Shown piece after piece: positions 21 to 53,720 of a stretch of 56,017 nt of DNA (its first letter is position 1; the number at the start of each line of letters is the position of its first letter). The notes under the pieces were generated by a model. It saw only the letters and a program-made list of their open reading frames with translations. It searched no databases and was not told the origin of the DNA. The position numbers were made by a program, and so were the translations under genes. This DNA is from Plectonema cf. radiosum LEGE 06105 (lineage in GTDB: Bacteria; Cyanobacteriota; Cyanobacteriia; Cyanobacteriales; Nostocaceae). The DNA lies in assembly GCF_015207665.1 (NCBI RefSeq), contig NZ_JADEWL010000029.1, positions 1 to 56,017 of the forward strand. Reading direction: 5' to 3'.

Positions 21-2186
21 TTAATTCCGATGCACTCCTGTTGAATACTCTTCCGGATTTAAAACTTCTGAGTCTTCTTGTTCAATATCTGAAATTGGTT
101 CTTCAAAGGTGAAATTGACATCAGCACCGTTGATAACTACTCCTAATAAACCCATGTCAGATTCGACTAATTCATCAACGGCTTCACCCAATACATTTTC
201 TTGAGTGTAATTCGGTCGAGTTACCATAATCATACCGTCGCTATAAGGATGAATTAGTAACGCATCGTTTGATAAACCCAAGGGTGTTGTATCTAAAATT
301 ACTAAGTCAAATCTTTCTCTGGCATCCTCAATTAATCGCCGTAATTCGCTTGATTCTAAGACTGCGGCTGATTGGCGTAATGGTCCAGGACTTGGTACTA
401 TGTATAAATTTTCTACATCGGGAACAAGGCGAATGCATTCGCTGTTGGCATAATAGCGTAGGGGTTCAATATTGGCATTGGAATCGGGATTTACCTTCAA
501 CGATTCACAACGAGATGGCGATCGCAAATCTGTTTCGATAATAATGGTGCGTTTTCCGGCGCGAGCGGAGGCAATACCCAAGTTATAAGCGCTTGTTGTT
601 TTACCTTCTAAACTACCAGTACTAGTAATTAACACTACTTTTACTTTTTTACCACCGATGCGACGCAAATTAGAACGGAATTTTTCTAAGAATTCCATGT
701 AGGGAGAATCGGCAGAAATTACTACGGGAACAAGTTTTTGGTCGCTGTCTTCAATGGGCATTATAGGTAATTCTGCAAGTAGCAAAACTTCTCGCTGCTT
801 GAGAGCGTTGCGAATATCTTCTTTGGTTTTGAAAGTACCTTCAAGGGAACCTAACAAGAAGATTACACCACCACCAATTAATAATCCTAAGAAACCACCT
901 ATACCTAAAGTTATCGGTATACTCTTAGCAGTTGATTCCTCTGGTATAACCACTGGTGGTTGAGCGATTGCTAAAGTACTTACAGTTTCTGCTTCTGCGG
1001 TTTTGGCATCGACTAATTTGGCCTGCATCTGATCATAGACAGCTTTTTTTAAACCAACCTGCTGTAATAATCGCGATCGCTCTAGTTGCTTATTCGGTAT
1101 AAGAGCATAATCTCGCTGTAGTTTGGCTTTTTCTTGTACTAAATCAATTGATTGCCTTTGTAAAGTTTCTCGTTGAGTTTGTAAAGCAACCAGTTGATTT
1201 GCTAACTGCTGTCTGGCTGGATCTAAATTACTTTGAGCGCGAACACCGGAAACATTAGGTAAAGGAGCAAGGGCACCACCACCACCAACTACCTCGTTGG
1301 CACGTTCTTGCAACAGTCGTTCATAAGCATCTTTTTGACGCTGCAACTGAATCATATTAGGATGAGTAGGACGCAAGTCTTTTCTGAAAACCTCCATCTG
1401 GGATTCAACTTGATAAATTTGACTGCGTAAATTGGCAATAATTGGATCTGCGCTCAACGCCGAAGAAGTATATGCTTGCTGAGGACTCAATCCCAATCTT
1501 TGCTGCAAGCTACGAATTTGAGCATCAATACCAGAAATAGTCAATTTAATTAGTCTTTCCTGATTTTGGCTACCTGTAATTGCGTTGAGCAAACTACCAT
1601 CTTCAGCAGCTAGTATTGCGGGACGTTCTATTCTGTCGTATTGTTCGAGTTTTTTCTCAGCCTCTTGTAATTCTTTGTTAACAAAAGGTAGTCTTTCCTC
1701 AATTTTGTCGATAATTGCTTGTAATCGTCCGGTGTTAATCTCGGCGCTTAATTGCACCATTGCTTCCATTAAACCAAGTACTGTTTGTTGCGCTCTTTTA
1801 CCGTCGGTATCTTGGTATTTAATGCTAATAATTGCACCATTTAACTGCCCGTCAGCGGCTATTTCGGGTATGCTAACTGCAACATTGCTACCAATTTTTT
1901 TTGGCTTTACATTAACTTTGGTTGCAACAGCTTCAATGACTTTATCTTGTAGTAAGACTTCTTTCGATAACGCCAAACCTCTTTGCTGAATTTCAGTACC
2001 CGTTGCGGAAAAACTCACTGGTGGACGGGTATAGGTTAAAGCACCAGCGGCTGTAAATTTGGGTGCTGGTTCTGGTTGTACGGCTAATATGGTTGACCCT
2101 GCGACAACCAAACCAAAACTTGCCAATCCAATCCATTTGTATTTATCGAAAGCAATTAAATAGCGTTTAACAATCGGTGGAGTCAT
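21..2186 (-). CDS. Polysaccharide chain-length / tyrosine autokinase-like protein (Wzz-BY-kinase type)
   Basis: This 721-residue inner-membrane protein probably controls chain length and export of an exopolysaccharide. It has an N-terminal membrane helix near residues 19-36, a long periplasmic coiled-coil region (about 140-410), a second helix near 427-449 (IGGFLGLLIGGGVIFLLG) and a cytoplasmic P-loop ATPase domain. Visible nucleotide-binding motifs are Walker A (TSTGSLEGKTT), Walker A' (IIIETDLRSPS) and Walker B (DLVILDTTPLG). This is the Wzz plus CpsD/CapB architecture of bacterial tyrosine kinases. The usual C-terminal tyrosine cluster is missing: the tail has a single Tyr (EEYSTGVHRN). 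It lies 66 bp downstream of the Wza-like gene and is probably co-transcribed with it. Family assignment is firm; autokinase activity is uncertain. Confidence 0.9.
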   Translation of the reverse strand: MTPPIVKRYLIAFDKYKWIGLASFGLVVAGSTILAVQPEPAPKFTAAGALTYTRPPVSFSATGTEIQQRGLALSKEVLLQDKVIEAVATKVNVKPKKIGSNVAVSIPEIAADGQLNGAIISIKYQDTDGKRAQQTVLGLMEAMVQLSAEINTGRLQAIIDKIEERLPFVNKELQEAEKKLEQYDRIERPAILAAEDGSLLNAITGSQNQERLIKLTISGIDAQIRSLQQRLGLSPQQAYTSSALSADPIIANLRSQIYQVESQMEVFRKDLRPTHPNMIQLQRQKDAYERLLQERANEVVGGGGALAPLPNVSGVRAQSNLDPARQQLANQLVALQTQRETLQRQSIDLVQEKAKLQRDYALIPNKQLERSRLLQQVGLKKAVYDQMQAKLVDAKTAEAETVSTLAIAQPPVVIPEESTAKSIPITLGIGGFLGLLIGGGVIFLLGSLEGTFKTKEDIRNALKQREVLLLAELPIMPIEDSDQKLVPVVISADSPYMEFLEKFRSNLRRIGGKKVKVVLITSTGSLEGKTTSAYNLGIASARAGKRTIIIETDLRSPSRCESLKVNPDSNANIEPLRYYANSECIRLVPDVENLYIVPSPGPLRQSAAVLESSELRRLIEDARERFDLVILDTTPLGLSNDALLIHPYSDGMIMVTRPNYTQENVLGEAVDELVESDMGLLGVVINGADVNFTFEEPISDIEQEDSEVLNPEEYSTGVHRN

Positions 2187-2252
2187 GGTAAAAGTAGATA
2201 CAAACAGAATTGACGGCAGATCGGAACTATATCAGTTGATTTATATTGAGAT

Positions 2253-3632
2253 TTAAAAACTAAAGGTTTCAAAAAAGCGCACAAAAGATTGAATATCAAA
2301 GAAAGGTCTAGTAGCATTTGAAAGAACATTGGTAATTTTACCAATCAAATTTCGACCGACAATAATCACATCGTTATCTTGCAATGGTACATTTTGGGAA
2401 GCATCTCCTCTAAGTACTCTTCTTCCGTTTAGTTTCTGGGTAATGGCTCTACCTTGTTCTGGATCAAAGCGGACTAAAGCAATGTTCGTTAAGTCGGAAC
2501 GACCAATACTTACACTTCCCAAAGCATCAATAAAGCTGCTACCGCTAGGTAAATTTTGGGTAATGATTGCGCCATTCGCATAATTGAGTACGCGGACTCT
2601 AATTACAGGTTGTGCTAAAGATGAACGTGCAACTATATTACGGTCATAACCATCATCTGTACCGATTTCGCGACGGGGAATAATTATGGAATCACCATCT
2701 TGTAAGCGTAATGAAGCGAAAGTACCACCATTCAATAAAGGACTGTACAAATCAATATTTTGTGAGACGGTGGAACCATCAATCAATTTGCGACGTACTT
2801 GCACTTGTCGTAAATCCGCTGCTATCGTTGAACCTCCAGCTATCCGTAGAACATCAAGAACACTCGGTTGTGGAGTCCCTACGGGATAAACTCCTGGTCT
2901 GGTGATTTCTCCGGCAACATTTACTTGGACAAGTCGCGGCGATATCAAGGAAACTGTGACTACCGGGTCTACTTGAATTCGCTCTAAACTCAACCGAATT
3001 TTTTCTTGGGCTTCTTCTAAAGTTAAACCTTGTACCGAGACTTTCCCCAGTCGTGGAACTGTGATGTTACCTTCTAAATCAACTTGCGTCTGAAAATTTA
3101 TTGGAGGACGTTGTGCAGCTAATGATACAGTAACACTGGGTTCGACTACAAAACGATTCAAGCCAGCCCGAATCTTTGCTTGTGCTTGTTCTAAGGTTAA
3201 ACCTTGCAGCGATACAGTTCCTACCAAGGGTACTACAACAGTTCCCTGTCGATTAATCGATGCTTGAAAGCTCAAATCTGGAAAACGCTGCACTATTACA
3301 GTAATTCCATCTCCTTCTCCTAAACGGTAAGCTCCTTGGGGTGATTCCACAAATATAGCTACCCCATCACCCGCTCCTAATAGATATCGAGTAAATACAG
3401 GCGAAATTTCTCCATCGTCATTTGCAGGTAGCGGAGCTAAAAACTCCGGGTCGCTTGGAGGTGCGGGAATTGATTGGATAGAGTTGTTTTCTGGGGGTAT
3501 TTGAGCAAAAGCAGGTTGAGAAGCTGTTACAAAAAAAACACTTACTTGAAGACTAGCGACGCAAAAAGCGTTGAATCCACGCATATAACCTAATCGAGTT
3601 CTAAATATCTGTGCTTTATCAGCTTGAAGCAA
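2253..3632 (-). CDS. Polysaccharide export protein, Wza/SLBB family
   Basis: This 459-residue secreted or outer-membrane protein likely forms the export channel for the polymer handled by the adjacent Wzz/kinase protein. A signal peptide is visible (FNAFCVASLQVSVFFV then ASQPAFAQ). A second Met at residue 17 (about 3584) gives a more typical signal peptide and may be the true start. Two tandem poly-export units follow, each ending in a LxGLTLEQAQAKI-like segment (GTVSLQGLTLEQAQAKI and GKVSVQGLTLEEAQEKI), then SLBB-type beta-grasp regions (VNVAGEITRPGVYPVG). It is the upstream partner of the chain-length gene in the same orientation. Confidence 0.9.
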   Translation of the reverse strand: MLQADKAQIFRTRLGYMRGFNAFCVASLQVSVFFVTASQPAFAQIPPENNSIQSIPAPPSDPEFLAPLPANDDGEISPVFTRYLLGAGDGVAIFVESPQGAYRLGEGDGITVIVQRFPDLSFQASINRQGTVVVPLVGTVSLQGLTLEQAQAKIRAGLNRFVVEPSVTVSLAAQRPPINFQTQVDLEGNITVPRLGKVSVQGLTLEEAQEKIRLSLERIQVDPVVTVSLISPRLVQVNVAGEITRPGVYPVGTPQPSVLDVLRIAGGSTIAADLRQVQVRRKLIDGSTVSQNIDLYSPLLNGGTFASLRLQDGDSIIIPRREIGTDDGYDRNIVARSSLAQPVIRVRVLNYANGAIITQNLPSGSSFIDALGSVSIGRSDLTNIALVRFDPEQGRAITQKLNGRRVLRGDASQNVPLQDNDVIIVGRNLIGKITNVLSNATRPFFDIQSFVRFFETFSF

Positions 3633-27402: not shown

Positions 27403-27769
27403 AAAGGTTAAAGGTTAAAGGTTAAAGGTCAAAAACACCTAACTACCAAATCCTAATTCCTAACTCTACCTCTGTTAAAGTGAAGTTTTTTCTAACCTAA
27501 TAATCAGGTTTTCAGCTTTGCACCGATTACAATTTGAAGGCAAAAATAATATTTACGCTCAATTTTTAGGTTTAAAATTTGGGTATATAACGTAAGAATA
27601 AGGCTTCCAACTAATACTAAGTTGGTACACCGTCTTCAGGGGTACTCCCAACTCCCAACTCCCAACTCCCAACTCCCAACTCCCAACTCCCAACTCCCAA
27701 CTCCCAACTCCCAACTCCTAACTCCTAACTCCTAACTCCTAACTCCTAACTTACCAAGACGGTTATATT
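27403..27769. repeat. Heptanucleotide repeat tract before hmpE
   Basis: The gap holds ggttaaa repeats (27405-27433) and a long tandem array of about 15 units of cccaact, shading into cctaact, at 27644-27750. The array ends 19 bp before the hmpE ATG. There is no obvious Shine-Dalgarno between. Copy number of such arrays is likely to vary by slippage. Confidence 0.9.
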
Positions 27770-30700
27770 ATGCTACCGGAACAACAACAACGCATTTTAG
27801 GATACTTTATTGAAGAAGCAACAGACCACCTGAATACTATTGAGCAGGGGTTGTTAAATCTCCAGAGTACTCTTAATGACCCGGATTTAATTAACGAAGT
27901 TTTCCGGGCTGCTCACTCGATTAAAGGAGGAGCAGCAATGCTTGGTTTGAGTAGCATTCAGCGTACTTCTCACCGTCTTGAAGACTGTTTCAAGGTTCTT
28001 AAGGATAGTCCGGTCAAAATCGATCAAAAGCTAGAATCTTTGTTTCTTGGGGTTTCCGATACTCTAAAAGTGCTATTAGAGCATTTGAGCGGACCTTTTG
28101 GTTTGACGGAGGAAACTGCAAATACTTTAATGGCTGAAGCTGAACCTGTATTTACTTGGCTCCACGAACATTTAGAAAAGCTGGTGCAACAGTCTACTGG
28201 TGAAAATGGGGTTGTTGCCGCCACTGAGAATAATCAATCACAACCAACCCTAGAAAATACCGCAGTATCTACTGGAAATAATTATCGCCAACTGCAAGCA
28301 GAAGTATTGAATAAACTGCGGCAGATGTTGCAATTATTTAAACAGCCAGCCACCCCTGAAAATCGGCAAAAGCTCTGGGAATGTACTGATTATTTAGCTG
28401 AGCTAGGAGATAAATTTAACTTGTCTGCTTGGAGTCATTTGTGTCGTTCGATGACAAGCGCGATCGCAACTGAAGAAAATACTTATCTAACTTTAGCCAA
28501 AATTGCGATTACTGAGATTAAACAAGCGTTGGAGCTAGTTTTAGCAAATCGGGAAAATCAAATTGTCATTAGTGAGCAATTAGAAGCATTAATTCCGGCT
28601 GCTCCAGTGGAATTGTTGGATATCAGCAATTTAGAGTTTGATGAACCCGACACGGAATTACTGGTAAACCCACCAACAGATAATTATTCAGAAGTTGCGG
28701 CTGTGGAAGCTTTGCATTTAACATCTCAAAATAATCAAGCCGATAGCATTCAAGCAGAAGACAATATTAACAGTTTGTTTGAGTTATCTGACCAATTGGA
28801 CGATAATGTTGATGATAGTGTCGATCGCGATGCACCGACAGTAATTCATGAATTAAATATTCACGGTCCAGAAGTAGGAGTATCTGAATTAAATACTCTG
28901 GCTGATTTATTTGAAGGAGAATCTTCCGAACTTGATGAAAATTGGCAACAAGAGAAAATAATTGATGCAAAAGCCGATAAATCCCAAAAACGCGATCGCG
29001 ATGTAGAAGCCAATATTGACCAAGCTAAAGATACCGATAGCGAATTTGCAGATTTTCTCTCGTTTGAACAGGAAAGTTCTCAAGATAACCCAACAACTGC
29101 TAAAGAAGAAATGACAATAATGCAGTTATTTGGTGAAGATTTTTCAGAATTAGATTTAGAAGATTTTAAAAATACTGGTAGCAAAGAGTTTGCGGGTAAT
29201 GAGTTATTCACAAATGATGGTGAACAAGAAATTAATGATTTACTCGAACTTAGTTTCGATGATAATAATGATTACAATACTGGTGAAGATGAATTAGATT
29301 CGCTTTTTGATGAACCTGTTTCTCATCGCGAACAATCTACAGAGAAAACTGTTGATTTTGACGATTTATTTCCAGAAATTGCGGTAGATGAAATAGCAGA
29401 TGTTACAGCACAAGAGGAAACATTTGATTTACCAAACTTTGAGCAAGTCGGTTTAAATACTTTATTTGGTGAATTTGAAAAACCAAGAGAAGAAAAAGAC
29501 TATAGTGATTTATTCGATGATTCTTCAGCCGAAGTAATCGAAAATTTGGGTAATATCTGGGAAAAAACGGAAATCATACCTCATGAAGATGTCGCAAAGA
29601 TATTAGAAGAAAATTTGCTTGAAGCTAGTAATGATCAAGTATCTGAATTTGTCAGCGTAGATTTTGAATTAGAAGATTTAGAGGATAATTCCAAAGATTC
29701 CACATTTTCTCCGGATGTTGTAGATGATTTATTGGAATTAACGCTGAGTGCTGAAAATGCTGATGATGATGATTTCTTTGCAACTGGGGAACAAGATAAT
29801 TTAAGTTTAATCGAAGTTGATAATCATGATGCTCAGCAATCATCTGCTGTGGAAGATTATTTCCTTGCAACTTTCTCGAAACAAGATAATTTAAATTTAC
29901 TTGAAGTCAATGATAATCATATTGAGCAATTAGCTGTAGAAGAAGATTTAATAGAAGAAGATTTATTTACAAGTTTCTCGGAACAAGATAATAATTTTAA
30001 TTTACTTGAAATCGATGATAATCATATTGAGCAATTAGCTGTAGAAGAAGATTTAATAGAAGAAGATTTATTTACAAGTTTCTCGGAACAAGATAATTTA
30101 AATTTACTTGAAATCGATAATGATATAGATAATCCTTTTGCACAACCATCTTCAGAAATAGATTACACCGAATCATCTTTTGATTTGGAAGTTATAACAG
30201 AAGTAAGTCCCCATAGAGATTCATCAGAAGATTTAGAAAATATTACAACTAATTCCGAAGCACAATTAATTGATGACTTATTTTCCCAAGATATTGCTTT
30301 TGATGACGAAATTAGTTTACAAGCAACATCAAAAGAAGAAAAAATCACCTTTTTACCTTTTAATTCCGAATCAAATGAGGAAGAAGAACTAAAATTTGAT
30401 GATTTTTCTGACTTAGAATCCTTACTCGAACAGCAAGAATTCCCAGATGCAGAATTTGCAGCCTTAGAAGATTTACTTGTCCTCGACAATCAGCAACAAT
30501 CAGCAGTCAAAGACACAGATGAATCCGTAAATACCGAAGACACCTTAACTATCAATGATGAATTCAGCGACTTAGAAAACCTACTTAAACAAGCTAATAC
30601 ATCCATACCCCGTACAAGTCAAAGCAACTCCACTTCTCCTAAAAATACTCGCAGCAGTAAAGGGGAACAATTAATGCGGGTTCCGGTGAAGCATTTGGAT

Positions 30701-50104: not shown

Positions 50105-50699
50105 GTTTGTGTTTAAGTTTCACATTAATCAAATAATCATAGCTGTAAATTATGTAGAGACTAGGATGACAATCACAGAAATCGGGTTTTGATCAGATTT
50201 ATCTTATTTTACAAATATTTATCCTAAAAACCTGACAAATCACACCACTTTTCTTTTCAAGATGGCTATTTAACTAAGTATATTTGGTAATAGTTTCAGA
50301 GGATGTTTTAAAATGTCTAATTTCATACTTTATCTTTCAAAACATCTTCTCAGATTTAAGTTCAAGAATTAATCGAATTTACGAAAAAAAGGTGAGTAAC
50401 ACCCACCTTAAAATGTATTCGCCAAATCTACTTGTTTATAGAATCAATTTTAAATAGATTTATTTCGGAAAATTATCCTTATTTTGTTGCCGTAAAAACA
50501 ATAGTTATTTCAATAATAGCTGTAGGCGTTTTTATTCGGACATTTACAGCATTTTGCAGATAAATGAGGTACACTTTTATGCTATGAAGCTCTTGTCGGA
50601 TGGGCATCCCTGCCTGTCCGAATTTGCCTTATAAAGATGAAATATGCTGTATATGTTCCCCCCAACCCTATTCCCTGTTGCCTTTATGACAAATAGTAA
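50105..50699. other. Intergenic region with two imperfect palindromes
   Basis: No gene is seen. A degenerate copy of the interspersed palindrome is at 50178-50242. A second pair, gaggatgtttt (about 50299-50309) with aaaacatcttctc (about 50339-50351), forms another hairpin. A short hairpin with ggtg/cacc arms is near 50391-50410. A GC-rich hairpin, tcgga ... tccga, is at about 50596-50621. Confidence 0.5.
50178..50242. repeat. Interspersed palindrome, copy G (degenerate)
   Basis: Arms agaaatcgggttttga and ctaaaaacctgacaaatc with an AT-rich centre; same overall size as the other copies but with several mismatches. Confidence 0.5.
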
Positions 50700-50990
50700 G
50701 TCGTGACGACTCCACACACCTCCCCTTCGGGGTAGGTGTGGGCTTCTGAAGAAGAAGCGCGTCATTAGCTTGAGTAGCCCGATATGCAAGGGTTACTACG
50801 TTTCCCAAGAATGTATAGGCACTCCGGGACATAGGGCTAGCAACCCGTTTCCTAGTCCCGTGACACTGCGGTTAGTGATTAAACATTTCTACTGGTAGAG
50901 GGAAAGTGTTACTAGCGTGAAACCTTGGAAAAACATTGGCAAAGGAAACCACCTGCAAGGGTCGAACTCATTATTAGTTCAAACAAAAAA
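50700..50990 (+). ncRNA. HEARO / IscB omega RNA region
   Basis: About 290 bp of GC-richer, strongly structured sequence directly upstream of iscB. It includes the hairpin ctccccttcggggta (about 50719-50734) and segments such as gggctagcaacccg and ctagtcccgtgac. IscB genes are known to be preceded by the HEARO RNA (HNH endonuclease-associated RNA and ORF), now called omega RNA, whose 5' end carries the guide. The guide would be about 16 nt flanking the left end. Precise ends are not assigned. Confidence 0.7.
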
Positions 50991-50991
50991 A

Positions 50992-52326
50992 ATGAAAGCA
51001 TTAGTTATCAACAAACACGGACAACCGTTAATGCCCACAACCCCAAGAAAAGCGCGAATTCTTTTACAATCTGGCAAAGCCAAAATTGTAGGAAGAGATC
51101 CGTTTACGATTCAGTTGATTTATGGCAGCAGTGGTTACAAGCAACCTATCTCGTTAGGGATTGACGCTGGATATAAACACGTTGGGTTTAGCGCCGTCAA
51201 TGAGAAAGAAGAATTGATGGGTGGAGAAATAGAACTTTTAGATGGGGTGTCAGAGCGCATCACTGAAAAGCAGAAATACCGCAGAACTCGCCGCAATAGA
51301 TTGCGTCATCGTGCAAAACGGTTTGATAATCGCAAATGTAAAAAAGGCTGGTTAGCTCGATCAATTCAGCACAAGCTAGATGCTCATTTGCGGTTCGTAG
51401 AGCGTGTTAAATCTAGGCTACCCATTACCAAAATAACGGTGGAGACAGCTAAATTTGACATTCAGAAAATTAAAAACCCAGACATTCAAGGTGAAGAATA
51501 CCAGCAAGGAGAACAGCTAGGATACAGAAACTTAACAAACTATATTCGTCATAGGGACGGGTACAAGTGTCAAAATCCTGATTGTAAAAATAAGAGTGCT
51601 GATAAAGTTCTTCAAGTTCACCACATCGGGTACTGGCAAAATCCGCCAGATAGAAGCAATCGACCCAGTAACTTGATTACTCTTTGTGATAAGTGCCATA
51701 GTTCACCCAATCACAAAAAAGGAAAGATTTTGCACGGATGGCAACCAAAAGTTAAGTCATTCAAAGCAGAAACTTTCATGTCTACTATATACAAACGAAT
51801 ATTAGAAGAACTGGGTGCAGAACAAGCTTTTGGCTATGAAACGGACTTGAAGCGGTTAGTATTGAAGCTCGAAAAAACTCACCACAATGATGCTTTCATT
51901 ATTGCTGGAGGTGAGACTCAGCGCATTATAGAACCTTTAATGATTGAGCAAATTCGTCGTCACAAAAGGTCGATGGAACAGTTTTATGATGCCAAATACA
52001 TCGATAAACGTACAGGAGAAAAAGTCAGTGGTTCTATCTTGAATTCTGGTAGACGTACCCGCAATAAAAACTTAAACGGAGAAAACCTGAGAGTTTATCG
52101 TGGGTTAAAAGTTTCTCGCGGACAACGACGCATTAAGAGGCAACGTTATCGTTACAACCCCAACGATTACGTGATGTTTGAAAACAGTGTTTATCGAGTT
52201 GTTGGAATGCAAAACTTAGGAACTGGAGTCAAGTTAGCCAACTATCCTGGTGTTGCAAACAAGGTTGTTAATGTCAACAAAGTCCATCCCATTAGAAAGA
52301 GAAGTGGTCTATGTGTCCGCGCATAG
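50992..52326 (+). CDS. iscB: IscB RNA-guided nuclease
   Basis: IscB is the omega-RNA-guided DNA nuclease ancestral to Cas9. The start at 50992 (MKALVINKHGQPLMP) is chosen because the PLMP domain begins there; the in-frame extension from GTG 50917 reads through the RNA region. The 444-residue protein shows the PLMP motif, RuvC-I D58 (SLGIDAGYKHVG), an Arg-rich bridge helix (about 97-115, RRTRRNRLRHRAKRF), RuvC-II E151 (ITVETAKFD), and an HNH domain with H210-H211, N227 and H236 plus Cys pairs C193/C198 and C232/C235. RuvC-III has D300 (THHNDAFIIAGG). All catalytic residues are present. Confidence 0.93.
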   Translation: MKALVINKHGQPLMPTTPRKARILLQSGKAKIVGRDPFTIQLIYGSSGYKQPISLGIDAGYKHVGFSAVNEKEELMGGEIELLDGVSERITEKQKYRRTRRNRLRHRAKRFDNRKCKKGWLARSIQHKLDAHLRFVERVKSRLPITKITVETAKFDIQKIKNPDIQGEEYQQGEQLGYRNLTNYIRHRDGYKCQNPDCKNKSADKVLQVHHIGYWQNPPDRSNRPSNLITLCDKCHSSPNHKKGKILHGWQPKVKSFKAETFMSTIYKRILEELGAEQAFGYETDLKRLVLKLEKTHHNDAFIIAGGETQRIIEPLMIEQIRRHKRSMEQFYDAKYIDKRTGEKVSGSILNSGRRTRNKNLNGENLRVYRGLKVSRGQRRIKRQRYRYNPNDYVMFENSVYRVVGMQNLGTGVKLANYPGVANKVVNVNKVHPIRKRSGLCVRA

Positions 52327-52502
52327 TTTGGCGATTCCTCAACCATCTCACTTCCTGGTTGAGTTGCAGTCAACTTTGGTCGGAGATGGTTTCGTCACCG
52401 CCCCGTCTTCATCCCACACTGATCCGGAGTACCGGATTCAGTTGTGGGGCTTCTGACGGGCTAGCTAACCGAGATGTCCACTGCTATAAACTAAATTAAA
52501 CT

Positions 52503-53720
52503 TTAAAGCATTGCGATACATTCAATTTCAACCAAAACATCCTTTGGTAAACGAGAAACTTCAACACAAGCGCGAGCGGGAGCGGATGCTTCATCAAAGT
52601 ATTTTGCGTAAACTGCATTTACCGCCGCAAAATCACCCATATTTTTTAAAAATACAGTGGTTTTGACAACATTTTCAAATGTCGCACCAGCTTCCGTTAA
52701 AATAGCTTCCAGATTAGCCATTACTCGTTCCGTTTGCTTCGTCACATCGTCAGTGTAAACCACACTTCCCGCTCTCGGATCGATCGCAATTTGTCCCGCA
52801 ACAAAAATCATTTCACCCGATGCCATAATCGCTTGATTATAAGGTCCCACTGGTGCGGGTGCGTTATCAGTTTTAATAACTTTACGAGTCATAGATTCTA
52901 CCTGAGAATAAGATGCTGCCGATTCTTGATATATTTCCCCATCTGGCATTATCGCACCAGTTAGGTCTGTATTTTCAAATGTCGCCCCATAAATATTCGC
53001 ATTAGTTAAATCGGCTTTTCTTAGGTTGGCGTTATTTAAGTTGGCTTTGGTGAGGTTAGCGTTTTGTAAATCGGCTCCTTGAAGGTTTGCATTTTGTAAG
53101 CAAGCTTTTGTCAGGTTTGCATCTTTTAAATATACTCCTACCAAATCAGCATCAGCTAAATTTGCCCCTGATAAATCGCATTGTTTCAAATCTGCTCCCC
53201 TGAGTTTGCATTTTTGAAGATTAGTATTTTTAAGCAATGCATCGCTTAAATCTGCTTGAGTTAAATCAGTTTCAGCCAAGTTTACTTGAATAAAACTTGA
53301 ATTAAATAATTTCGCTCCTGTAAGATTCGCTTTGAATAATGATGTTTTATTGAACTCGATATCATTTAATTGAGTATTGGTAAGATTAGCATTATCCAAA
53401 TTAGCGTTTTTAAATTCCGCCTTACATAGTTCGGCTTTACTCAAATCAGCATCAGCAAGTTCTGCTAACGTAAAATTCGCATGACAACCATTTATTCCAC
53501 TTAAGTTGGCTTTCAATAGAGATGCTCTACTTAAATTTGCAGAATTGAGGTTTGCTTTACTCAGGTTCACTTGATCTAAATTGCATCCAGCCAAATCTGC
53601 TCCTTGTAAATCGATTCCGCTTAAATCAGCACCTTTTAAATCCAATCCTCTCAAATTTATATTCTTAAACTTCCGATCGCCACCTGCATATTTTGTTAAA
53701 AGTTCTTCAGCGTTCATCAT
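52503..53720 (-). CDS. Pentapeptide-repeat / RidA fusion protein
   Basis: One uninterrupted frame of 405 residues joins about 45 pentapeptide units (residues 20-260; for example ADLSGIDLQGADLAGCNL, ANLQGADLQNANLTKANL) to a complete RidA domain (about 280-405). The RidA part starts at MTRKVIKTDNAPAPVGPYNQ and ends EVSRLPKDVLVEIECIAML, with the conserved Arg in PARACVEVSR. RidA enzymes hydrolyse reactive enamine/imine intermediates. The internal Met of the RidA part has AGGTAG six bases upstream, so a free RidA could also be made. Pentapeptide helices usually mediate binding, which may position RidA. Confidence 0.88.
   Translation of the reverse strand: MMNAEELLTKYAGGDRKFKNINLRGLDLKGADLSGIDLQGADLAGCNLDQVNLSKANLNSANLSRASLLKANLSGINGCHANFTLAELADADLSKAELCKAEFKNANLDNANLTNTQLNDIEFNKTSLFKANLTGAKLFNSSFIQVNLAETDLTQADLSDALLKNTNLQKCKLRGADLKQCDLSGANLADADLVGVYLKDANLTKACLQNANLQGADLQNANLTKANLNNANLRKADLTNANIYGATFENTDLTGAIMPDGEIYQESAASYSQVESMTRKVIKTDNAPAPVGPYNQAIMASGEMIFVAGQIAIDPRAGSVVYTDDVTKQTERVMANLEAILTEAGATFENVVKTTVFLKNMGDFAAVNAVYAKYFDEASAPARACVEVSRLPKDVLVEIECIAML

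What the first reader, a model, noticed from the sequence alone, without database searches (positions are those of the whole stretch)
50700..52470. Apparently intact solo IscB with HEARO/omega RNA
All RuvC (D58, E151, D300) and HNH (H210/H211, N227, H236) residues are present, and a structured RNA region precedes the gene. No transposase is linked. The left and right ends share a gtg(t)gggcttctga-type flank next to hairpins, which gives testable element borders and thus a natural guide sequence.
Basis: partly seen in the sequence, partly recalled or inferred. Interest (0 to 1): 0.72.

Follow-up and report, generated by a model that had tools for sequence, protein, structure and literature searches.

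The report
Intact IscB nuclease in IS605-type element
A cyanobacterial genome carries an apparently intact, RNA-guided DNA-cutting enzyme (IscB, from the family Cas9 evolved from) inside a small mobile element whose ends, guide RNA and likely target motif can be read from related copies; it is a well-resolved member of a known kind rather than something new.

Summary
The finding holds. Window 50992-52326 (+) encodes a 444-aa IscB (NCBIfam guided_IscB, 311 bits). A full-length HEARO/omega RNA lies upstream at 50703-50952 (77.5 bits, E 2.7e-15; below Rfam's gathering score of 83, so the default scan misses it). Aligned with 15 relatives it shows strong covariation. Element ends come from relatives: one genome has three copies identical over 1769 bp at unrelated sites, and four insertion sites have empty counterparts in other genomes. 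The element starts at GTGA and inserts without target duplication 5' of CTAA; in the window it is 50703-52464, with CTAA at 52465-52468. The predicted guide is the 5' flank, about 50683-50702, and the predicted TAM is CTAA; both are inferences. No Y1 transposase lies in the window, and none with matching ends was found in this genome at the sensitivity used. In the relative genome a tnpA/tnpB IS605 element shares the right end (80% over 143 nt). New member of a known kind: a non-autonomous IS200/IS605-type IscB element.

The parts
50703..52464 (+). IscB-carrying IS200/IS605-type element, 1762 bp, without transposase
   Evidence: ends by homology to three identical G025 copies and four empty sites of related insertions; window letters read
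52465..52468 (+). CTAA: insertion-site motif (TTAG on the bottom strand), predicted TAM after excision
   Evidence: four bases are present at the junction of 12 of 12 empty-site orthologues examined; exact CTAA in 7 of 12
50703..50952 (+). HEARO/omega RNA scaffold
   Evidence: RF02033 model 1-211, 77.5 bits, E 2.7e-15; covariation in 16 sequences
50683..50702 (+). predicted natural guide (5' flank of element, about 16-24 nt)
   Evidence: inference from the border position and from the published 5' spacer of HEARO RNAs (PMC9755519, passages)
50992..52326 (+). iscB, 444 aa, RuvC + HNH + C-terminal domain
   Evidence: dN/dS 0.054 and 0.061 to the two closest relatives, with dS near 2
50712..50742 (+). 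left subterminal hairpin (also a helix of the omega RNA)
   Evidence: helix 3, 8 of 13 pairs with double changes
52413..52449 (+). right subterminal hairpin followed by CTTCTGA

Best explanation
A non-autonomous IS200/IS605-type element carrying an IscB RNA-guided nuclease and its omega RNA. Shown here by sequence: an intact iscB under purifying selection, a covarying HEARO RNA starting at the element's left end, recent mobility of sister elements, and insertion of sister elements 5' of CTAA without duplication. Inferred: a Y1 transposase (TnpA) acting in trans excises and inserts the element on the bottom strand at TTAG. The omega RNA begins in the flanking DNA, so its 5' guide is the left flank. 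IscB-omegaRNA therefore recognises left flank + CTAA, the donor joint left after excision, cuts it, and so promotes re-copying of the element from the sister chromosome. In the occupied site the guide-matching flank is followed by GTGA, not CTAA, so the element does not cut itself.
For: NCBIfam guided_IscB 311 bits against a cut-off of 175; Pfam RRXRR + HNH; 8 of the 10 PDB sequences matched are named IscB. HEARO full model, E 2.7e-15; 9 of 12 clade loci scanned pass the gathering score. 34 of 64 pairs with double changes, 95.9% of cells paired against 84.2% shuffled and at most 46.7% slid. Three copies identical over 1769 bp at unrelated sites in G025. Four insertion sites with 12 empty orthologues examined: a joint with CTAA scores above one with GTGA in 10 of 12 and ties in 2; a joint with neither is worst in 12 of 12. 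One empty site is an intact DUF4058 gene. dN/dS 0.054 and 0.061. Trans partner: tnpA/tnpB element in G025 sharing the right end. Priestia relative with iscB directly followed by tnpA.
Against: The window copy's own empty site was not found; congeners lack a larger stretch, about 50515-52493. Only 4 of 12 joined sites gave an empty site, and 5 of 12 empty orthologues do not read exactly CTAA. No transposase with matching ends found in this genome, so current mobility is doubtful. The partner's left end shares layout with the IscB element but no BLAST-detectable sequence. dS to the two closest relatives is near saturation and could not be computed for the other 10 of 12. Guide, TAM and cleavage untested. 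Structure prediction failed (mean pLDDT 41).
Confidence: 0.85

Rival explanations
1. A domesticated, immobile IscB kept for a host function (for example defence or regulation) with a fixed useful guide.
For: No second copy of the right end and no matching transposase found in this genome; open frame and purifying selection.
Against: Absent from the syntenic locus of the 7 congeners examined, whose best IscB hits are 5.2e-39 or weaker, 3 of 7 having none. Left flanks of relatives show no common sequence. Guide followed by CTAA has no match in the genome within 3 mismatches except the self-site, which reads GTGA; a 15-nt part of the guide followed by NTAA has no exact match in viral contigs.
Confidence: 0.08
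2. A decaying relic: the element has lost mobility and the nuclease is not expressed.
For: HEARO score below gathering; no matching transposase found; two other HEARO-linked IscB copies in the genome are broken, though one (contig C110) is open.
Against: Full-length frame, conserved catalytic residues, covarying RNA.
Confidence: 0.15
3. Insertion in the opposite polarity: GTGA (left) is the target motif and CTAA belongs to the element.
For: GTGA and CTAA are both constant at the ends, so occupied sites alone cannot decide.
Against: Empty sites carry CTAA or near variants, and CTAA outscores GTGA in 10 of 12 with 2 ties.
Confidence: 0.03

Closest known systems
IscB / OMEGA systems of IS200/IS605 elements (OgeuIscB and other solved IscBs)
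   Same: N-terminal RRXRR region, split RuvC, HNH, upstream HEARO RNA; 5' spacer position in the RNA as published (PMC9755519 passages)
   Different: A divergent clade whose cyanobacterial members are 57-83% identical to the window protein; element starts GTGA where Rfam's HEARO consensus starts GUCA; predicted TAM CTAA
IS605 tnpA-tnpB element of genome G025 (L176)
   Same: Right end 80% identical over 143 nt to the G025 IscB element, ends in AGCTAA, begins at GTGA before a hairpin and GGCTTCT
   Different: Carries TnpA and TnpB instead of IscB; left end not alignable by BLAST
Priestia megaterium plasmid IscB (L181)
   Same: 57.7% identical over the matched 93% of the protein, HEARO upstream, 126.3 bits
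   Different: tnpA directly follows iscB in the same orientation, so likely autonomous
Cyanobacterial IscB of the same genome, contig C110 (L002)
   Same: IscB with HEARO
   Different: 35% identical over residues 5-313; a different clade

Membership tests
IscB | RuvC D/E/D and HNH catalytic residues | tested here: met
   D58, E151, D300; H210/H211, N227, H236 present; all but D300 invariant in 13
IscB | match to curated IscB profile | tested here: met
   NF040563 311 bits, cut-off 175
IscB | RNA-guided DNA cleavage | not testable with these tools
   needs biochemistry
HEARO / omega RNA (RF02033) | covariance-model match over the whole model | tested here: met
   model 1-211, E 2.7e-15
HEARO / omega RNA (RF02033) | score at or above Rfam gathering threshold (83 bits) | tested here: not met
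   77.5 bits; 9 of 12 clade relatives scanned do pass
HEARO / omega RNA (RF02033) | conserved base pairing in relatives | tested here: met
   34 of 64 pairs with double changes; shuffle and slide controls
IS200/IS605 element | insertion without target duplication next to a fixed short motif | tested here: met
   four sites of relatives, 12 empty orthologues; not shown for the window copy itself
IS200/IS605 element | subterminal hairpins at both ends | tested here: met
IS200/IS605 element | own Y1 transposase | tested here: not met
   no Y1 match in the window's contig; hence non-autonomous
IS200/IS605 element | transposase in trans with matching ends | tested here: inconclusive
   right end matched in relative genome G025; none found in own genome

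The most novel reading that the evidence does not exclude
In this cyanobacterial clade a tnpA-tnpB IS605 and a transposase-free IscB element share ends and the same insertion motif, so TnpB (reading TTAG on one strand) and IscB (reading CTAA on the other) would both police the same kind of donor joint: a two-nuclease partnership in which the IscB element parasitises the TnpA/TnpB element in trans.
Probability: 0.35. Interest if true: 0.55.

Novelty: new member of a known kind. Interest (0 to 1): 0.4.

Why it matters
It gives a compact (444 aa) IscB with element borders, a candidate native guide and a specific TAM prediction (CTAA) obtained by genomics alone. It also points to a genome (G025) with three identical, hence recently moved, copies and a plausible trans-acting IS605 partner. 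That makes the idea that IscB helps its element persist at the donor joint directly testable.

Tried and rejected
Gathering-level Rfam scan of the window found nothing; the permissive scan of 2.5 kb found HEARO. An early idea that the right border was an ATAAA at about 52486 (note) was dropped when G025 copies showed the border at AGCTAA. Congeners' empty locus did not give a clean empty site: in three (L096, L098, L099) the alignment stops at 50510-50514 and resumes at 52494-52498; in the other four it stops at 50474-50478 with 36 to 133 unaligned bases. The extra bases include a MITE-like repeat (50540-50658) and unexplained bases on both sides. Own-genome transposases: 10 Y1 matches, none with matching ends within about 1.5 kb by regular expression or short BLAST. 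The nearest TnpA, L143, is 53% identical to the G025 partner TnpA, and I saw no AGCTAA-type right end after it. No further copy of the window's right end in 7 genomes, but that search also missed the diverged G025 right ends, so it is insensitive. Guide + CTAA: only the self-site, which has GTGA; no exact match of a shortened pattern in viral contigs. AlphaFold model unusable (pLDDT 41), so no fold search was run. Literature searches: IscB-cyanobacteria-TnpA-TAM, HEARO-IscB (49), IscB-target-adjacent motif (54), IscB-TnpA-excision (55), IscB-Nostoc (56), HEARO-Weinberg-cyanobacteria (57); among the listed titles and abstract starts I saw none describing this clade or a CTAA TAM. The library lacks most subscription papers.

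Circularity to note: the border profiles (19 left, 13 right ends) used ends mostly found with regular expressions that already required TGA..CTCC and AGCT[AG]A, so constancy of those letters there is partly by construction. Of the nine HEARO starts, eight coincide with a border found; the ninth, L077, took its border. The independent evidence is the G025 identity boundaries and the empty sites. Rows dropped: six loci without a right end found by the pattern or not tried (L074, L075, L077, L081, L082, L091); L077 from the protein alignment because its frame as given holds stops; L089-L091 from the RNA alignment as near-identical copies, and L081 and L086 from the protein alignment.

Full report
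Observation. The window's ORF at 50992-52326 encodes 444 aa. Pfam gives RRXRR (E 2.3e-59) and HNH, and NCBIfam gives guided_IscB at 311 bits against a cut-off of 175. Ten distinct PDB sequences match: eight named IscB (one a REC-swap construct), one IsrB fusion and one named YnpsCas9. In the 13 aligned proteins D58, E151, H210, H211, N227 and H236 are invariant and D300 departs in one. The nearest relatives are 83% and 81% identical, with dN/dS of 0.054 and 0.061 at dS near 2; for the other 10 of 12 comparisons with the window synonymous sites were saturated and no ratio could be given. Four pairs among relatives gave 0.06-0.19. In the plasmid collection 24 records match; the best is Priestia megaterium (57.7%), followed mostly by other Bacillota.

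RNA. HEARO RF02033 matches 50703-50952 over the full model, 77.5 bits, E 2.7e-15, below the gathering score of 83; the default scan therefore reports nothing. Of 12 related loci scanned, 9 pass the gathering score; in 8 of these 9 model position 1 falls on the border found separately, and for L077 the border was taken from this hit. In an alignment of 16 clade RNAs RNAalifold predicts 64 pairs, 34 with changes on both sides. Counting on that structure, 95.9% of cells pair against 84.2% in shuffles; the covariation score is 0.419 against 0.188, with 0 of 500 shuffles as high. Sliding the partner by 1-3 columns drops pairing to 36-47%. The structure was derived from the same alignment, so the slid control favours it somewhat; the shuffle control ignores relatedness.

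Borders. Genome G025 (same family) holds five copies of a 65%-identical relative. Three (L088, L089, L090) are identical over 1769 bp, positions 1705-3473 of the fetched stretches, with unrelated flanks; a fourth (L091) is identical over 1731 bp and lacks the right end; the fifth (L092) is 77% identical. The identity starts at GTGACGACTCC and ends at AGCTAA. In the window these correspond to 50703 and 52468.

Insertion motif. I joined left flank + CTAA + right flank for 12 insertion sites and searched 217 genomes of the family (the list is truncated and two candidates per genome were scored). Four of the 12 sites gave junction-spanning empty orthologues in the rows I followed, and I examined 12 such orthologues. 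At the four junction bases they read CTAA in 7, CTAG in 2, CTGG in 2, CAAA in 1. The joint with CTAA scores above a joint with GTGA in 10 of 12 and ties in 2; a joint with neither is worst in 12 of 12. So the four bases at the right edge belong to the target, there is no duplication, and by homology the element is 50703-52464 in the window. One empty site is an intact 261-aa DUF4058 gene. The window's own empty site was not recovered: the seven congeners examined lack a larger stretch, about 50515-52493.

Transposase. The own genome has 10 Y1 transposase matches, none in the window's contig and none with the element's ends found within about 1.5 kb. The right end has no second copy in own genome, five congeners or G025, but that search did not even match the diverged G025 right ends and is therefore insensitive. 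In G025, one of 24 Y1 matches has a right end 80% identical over 143 nt to the G025 IscB element. It is a tnpA/tnpB pair (Pfam Y1_Tnp; OrfB_IS605 and Cas12f1-like_TNB) whose left end begins GTGA, then a hairpin and GGCTTCT, though without detectable sequence similarity beyond that layout. In Priestia the 57.7%-identical IscB is followed directly by a Y1 transposase gene. Together these support mobilisation by an IS200/IS605 transposase in trans; it is not proven.

Mechanism. Published work on HEARO/IscB reprogrammed the 5' spacer of the RNA (PMC9755519, passages). For TnpB the transposase target motif serves as TAM and the donor joint is the proposed target (PMC8612924, passages). IsrB TAMs were read from bases downstream of the target (PMC9581776, passages). 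The original OMEGA and IscB-TnpA papers were not held and are recalled only. Combining these with the borders, the window's guide should be about 50683-50702 and the TAM CTAA. The occupied site presents GTGA after the guide match and should be spared. Guide plus CTAA has no other match within 3 mismatches in the genome.

Rank. All parts belong to a known kind. What is added is borders, an insertion motif with empty sites in relatives, a TAM prediction, and a candidate trans partner.

Noticed in passing
52503-53720 (-): A 405-aa ORF fuses pentapeptide repeats to a RidA/YjgF-type (PF01042) domain; the stretch aligns nearly end to end in five congeners.
   Followed up: partly
50540-50658: MITE-like partly palindromic repeat just left of the element; the search with 50500-50702 gave 31 matches in own genome (self included) and matches in 4 of 4 congeners searched.
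   Followed up: partly
L006, L008, L009, L011 (own genome contigs C68, C208, C292, C148): HEARO RNAs above the gathering score with no IscB gene found within the fetched stretch (L008 has only a 26-aa match): possible orphan omega RNAs served in trans by the contig C110 IscB.
   Followed up: partly
L010 (C157) and L013/L003 (C308): An internally deleted IscB and a frame-broken IscB, each beside a HEARO RNA.
   Followed up: no
27644-27751 and other places: Many heptanucleotide tandem arrays across the window, e.g. ACTCCCA x15.
   Followed up: no
29790-30115: Tandem repeat of about 105 nt, 2-3 copies.
   Followed up: no
L181 2820-3179: Priestia megaterium plasmid: tnpA start overlaps the iscB stop, suggesting an iscB-tnpA operon in one element.
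   Followed up: partly
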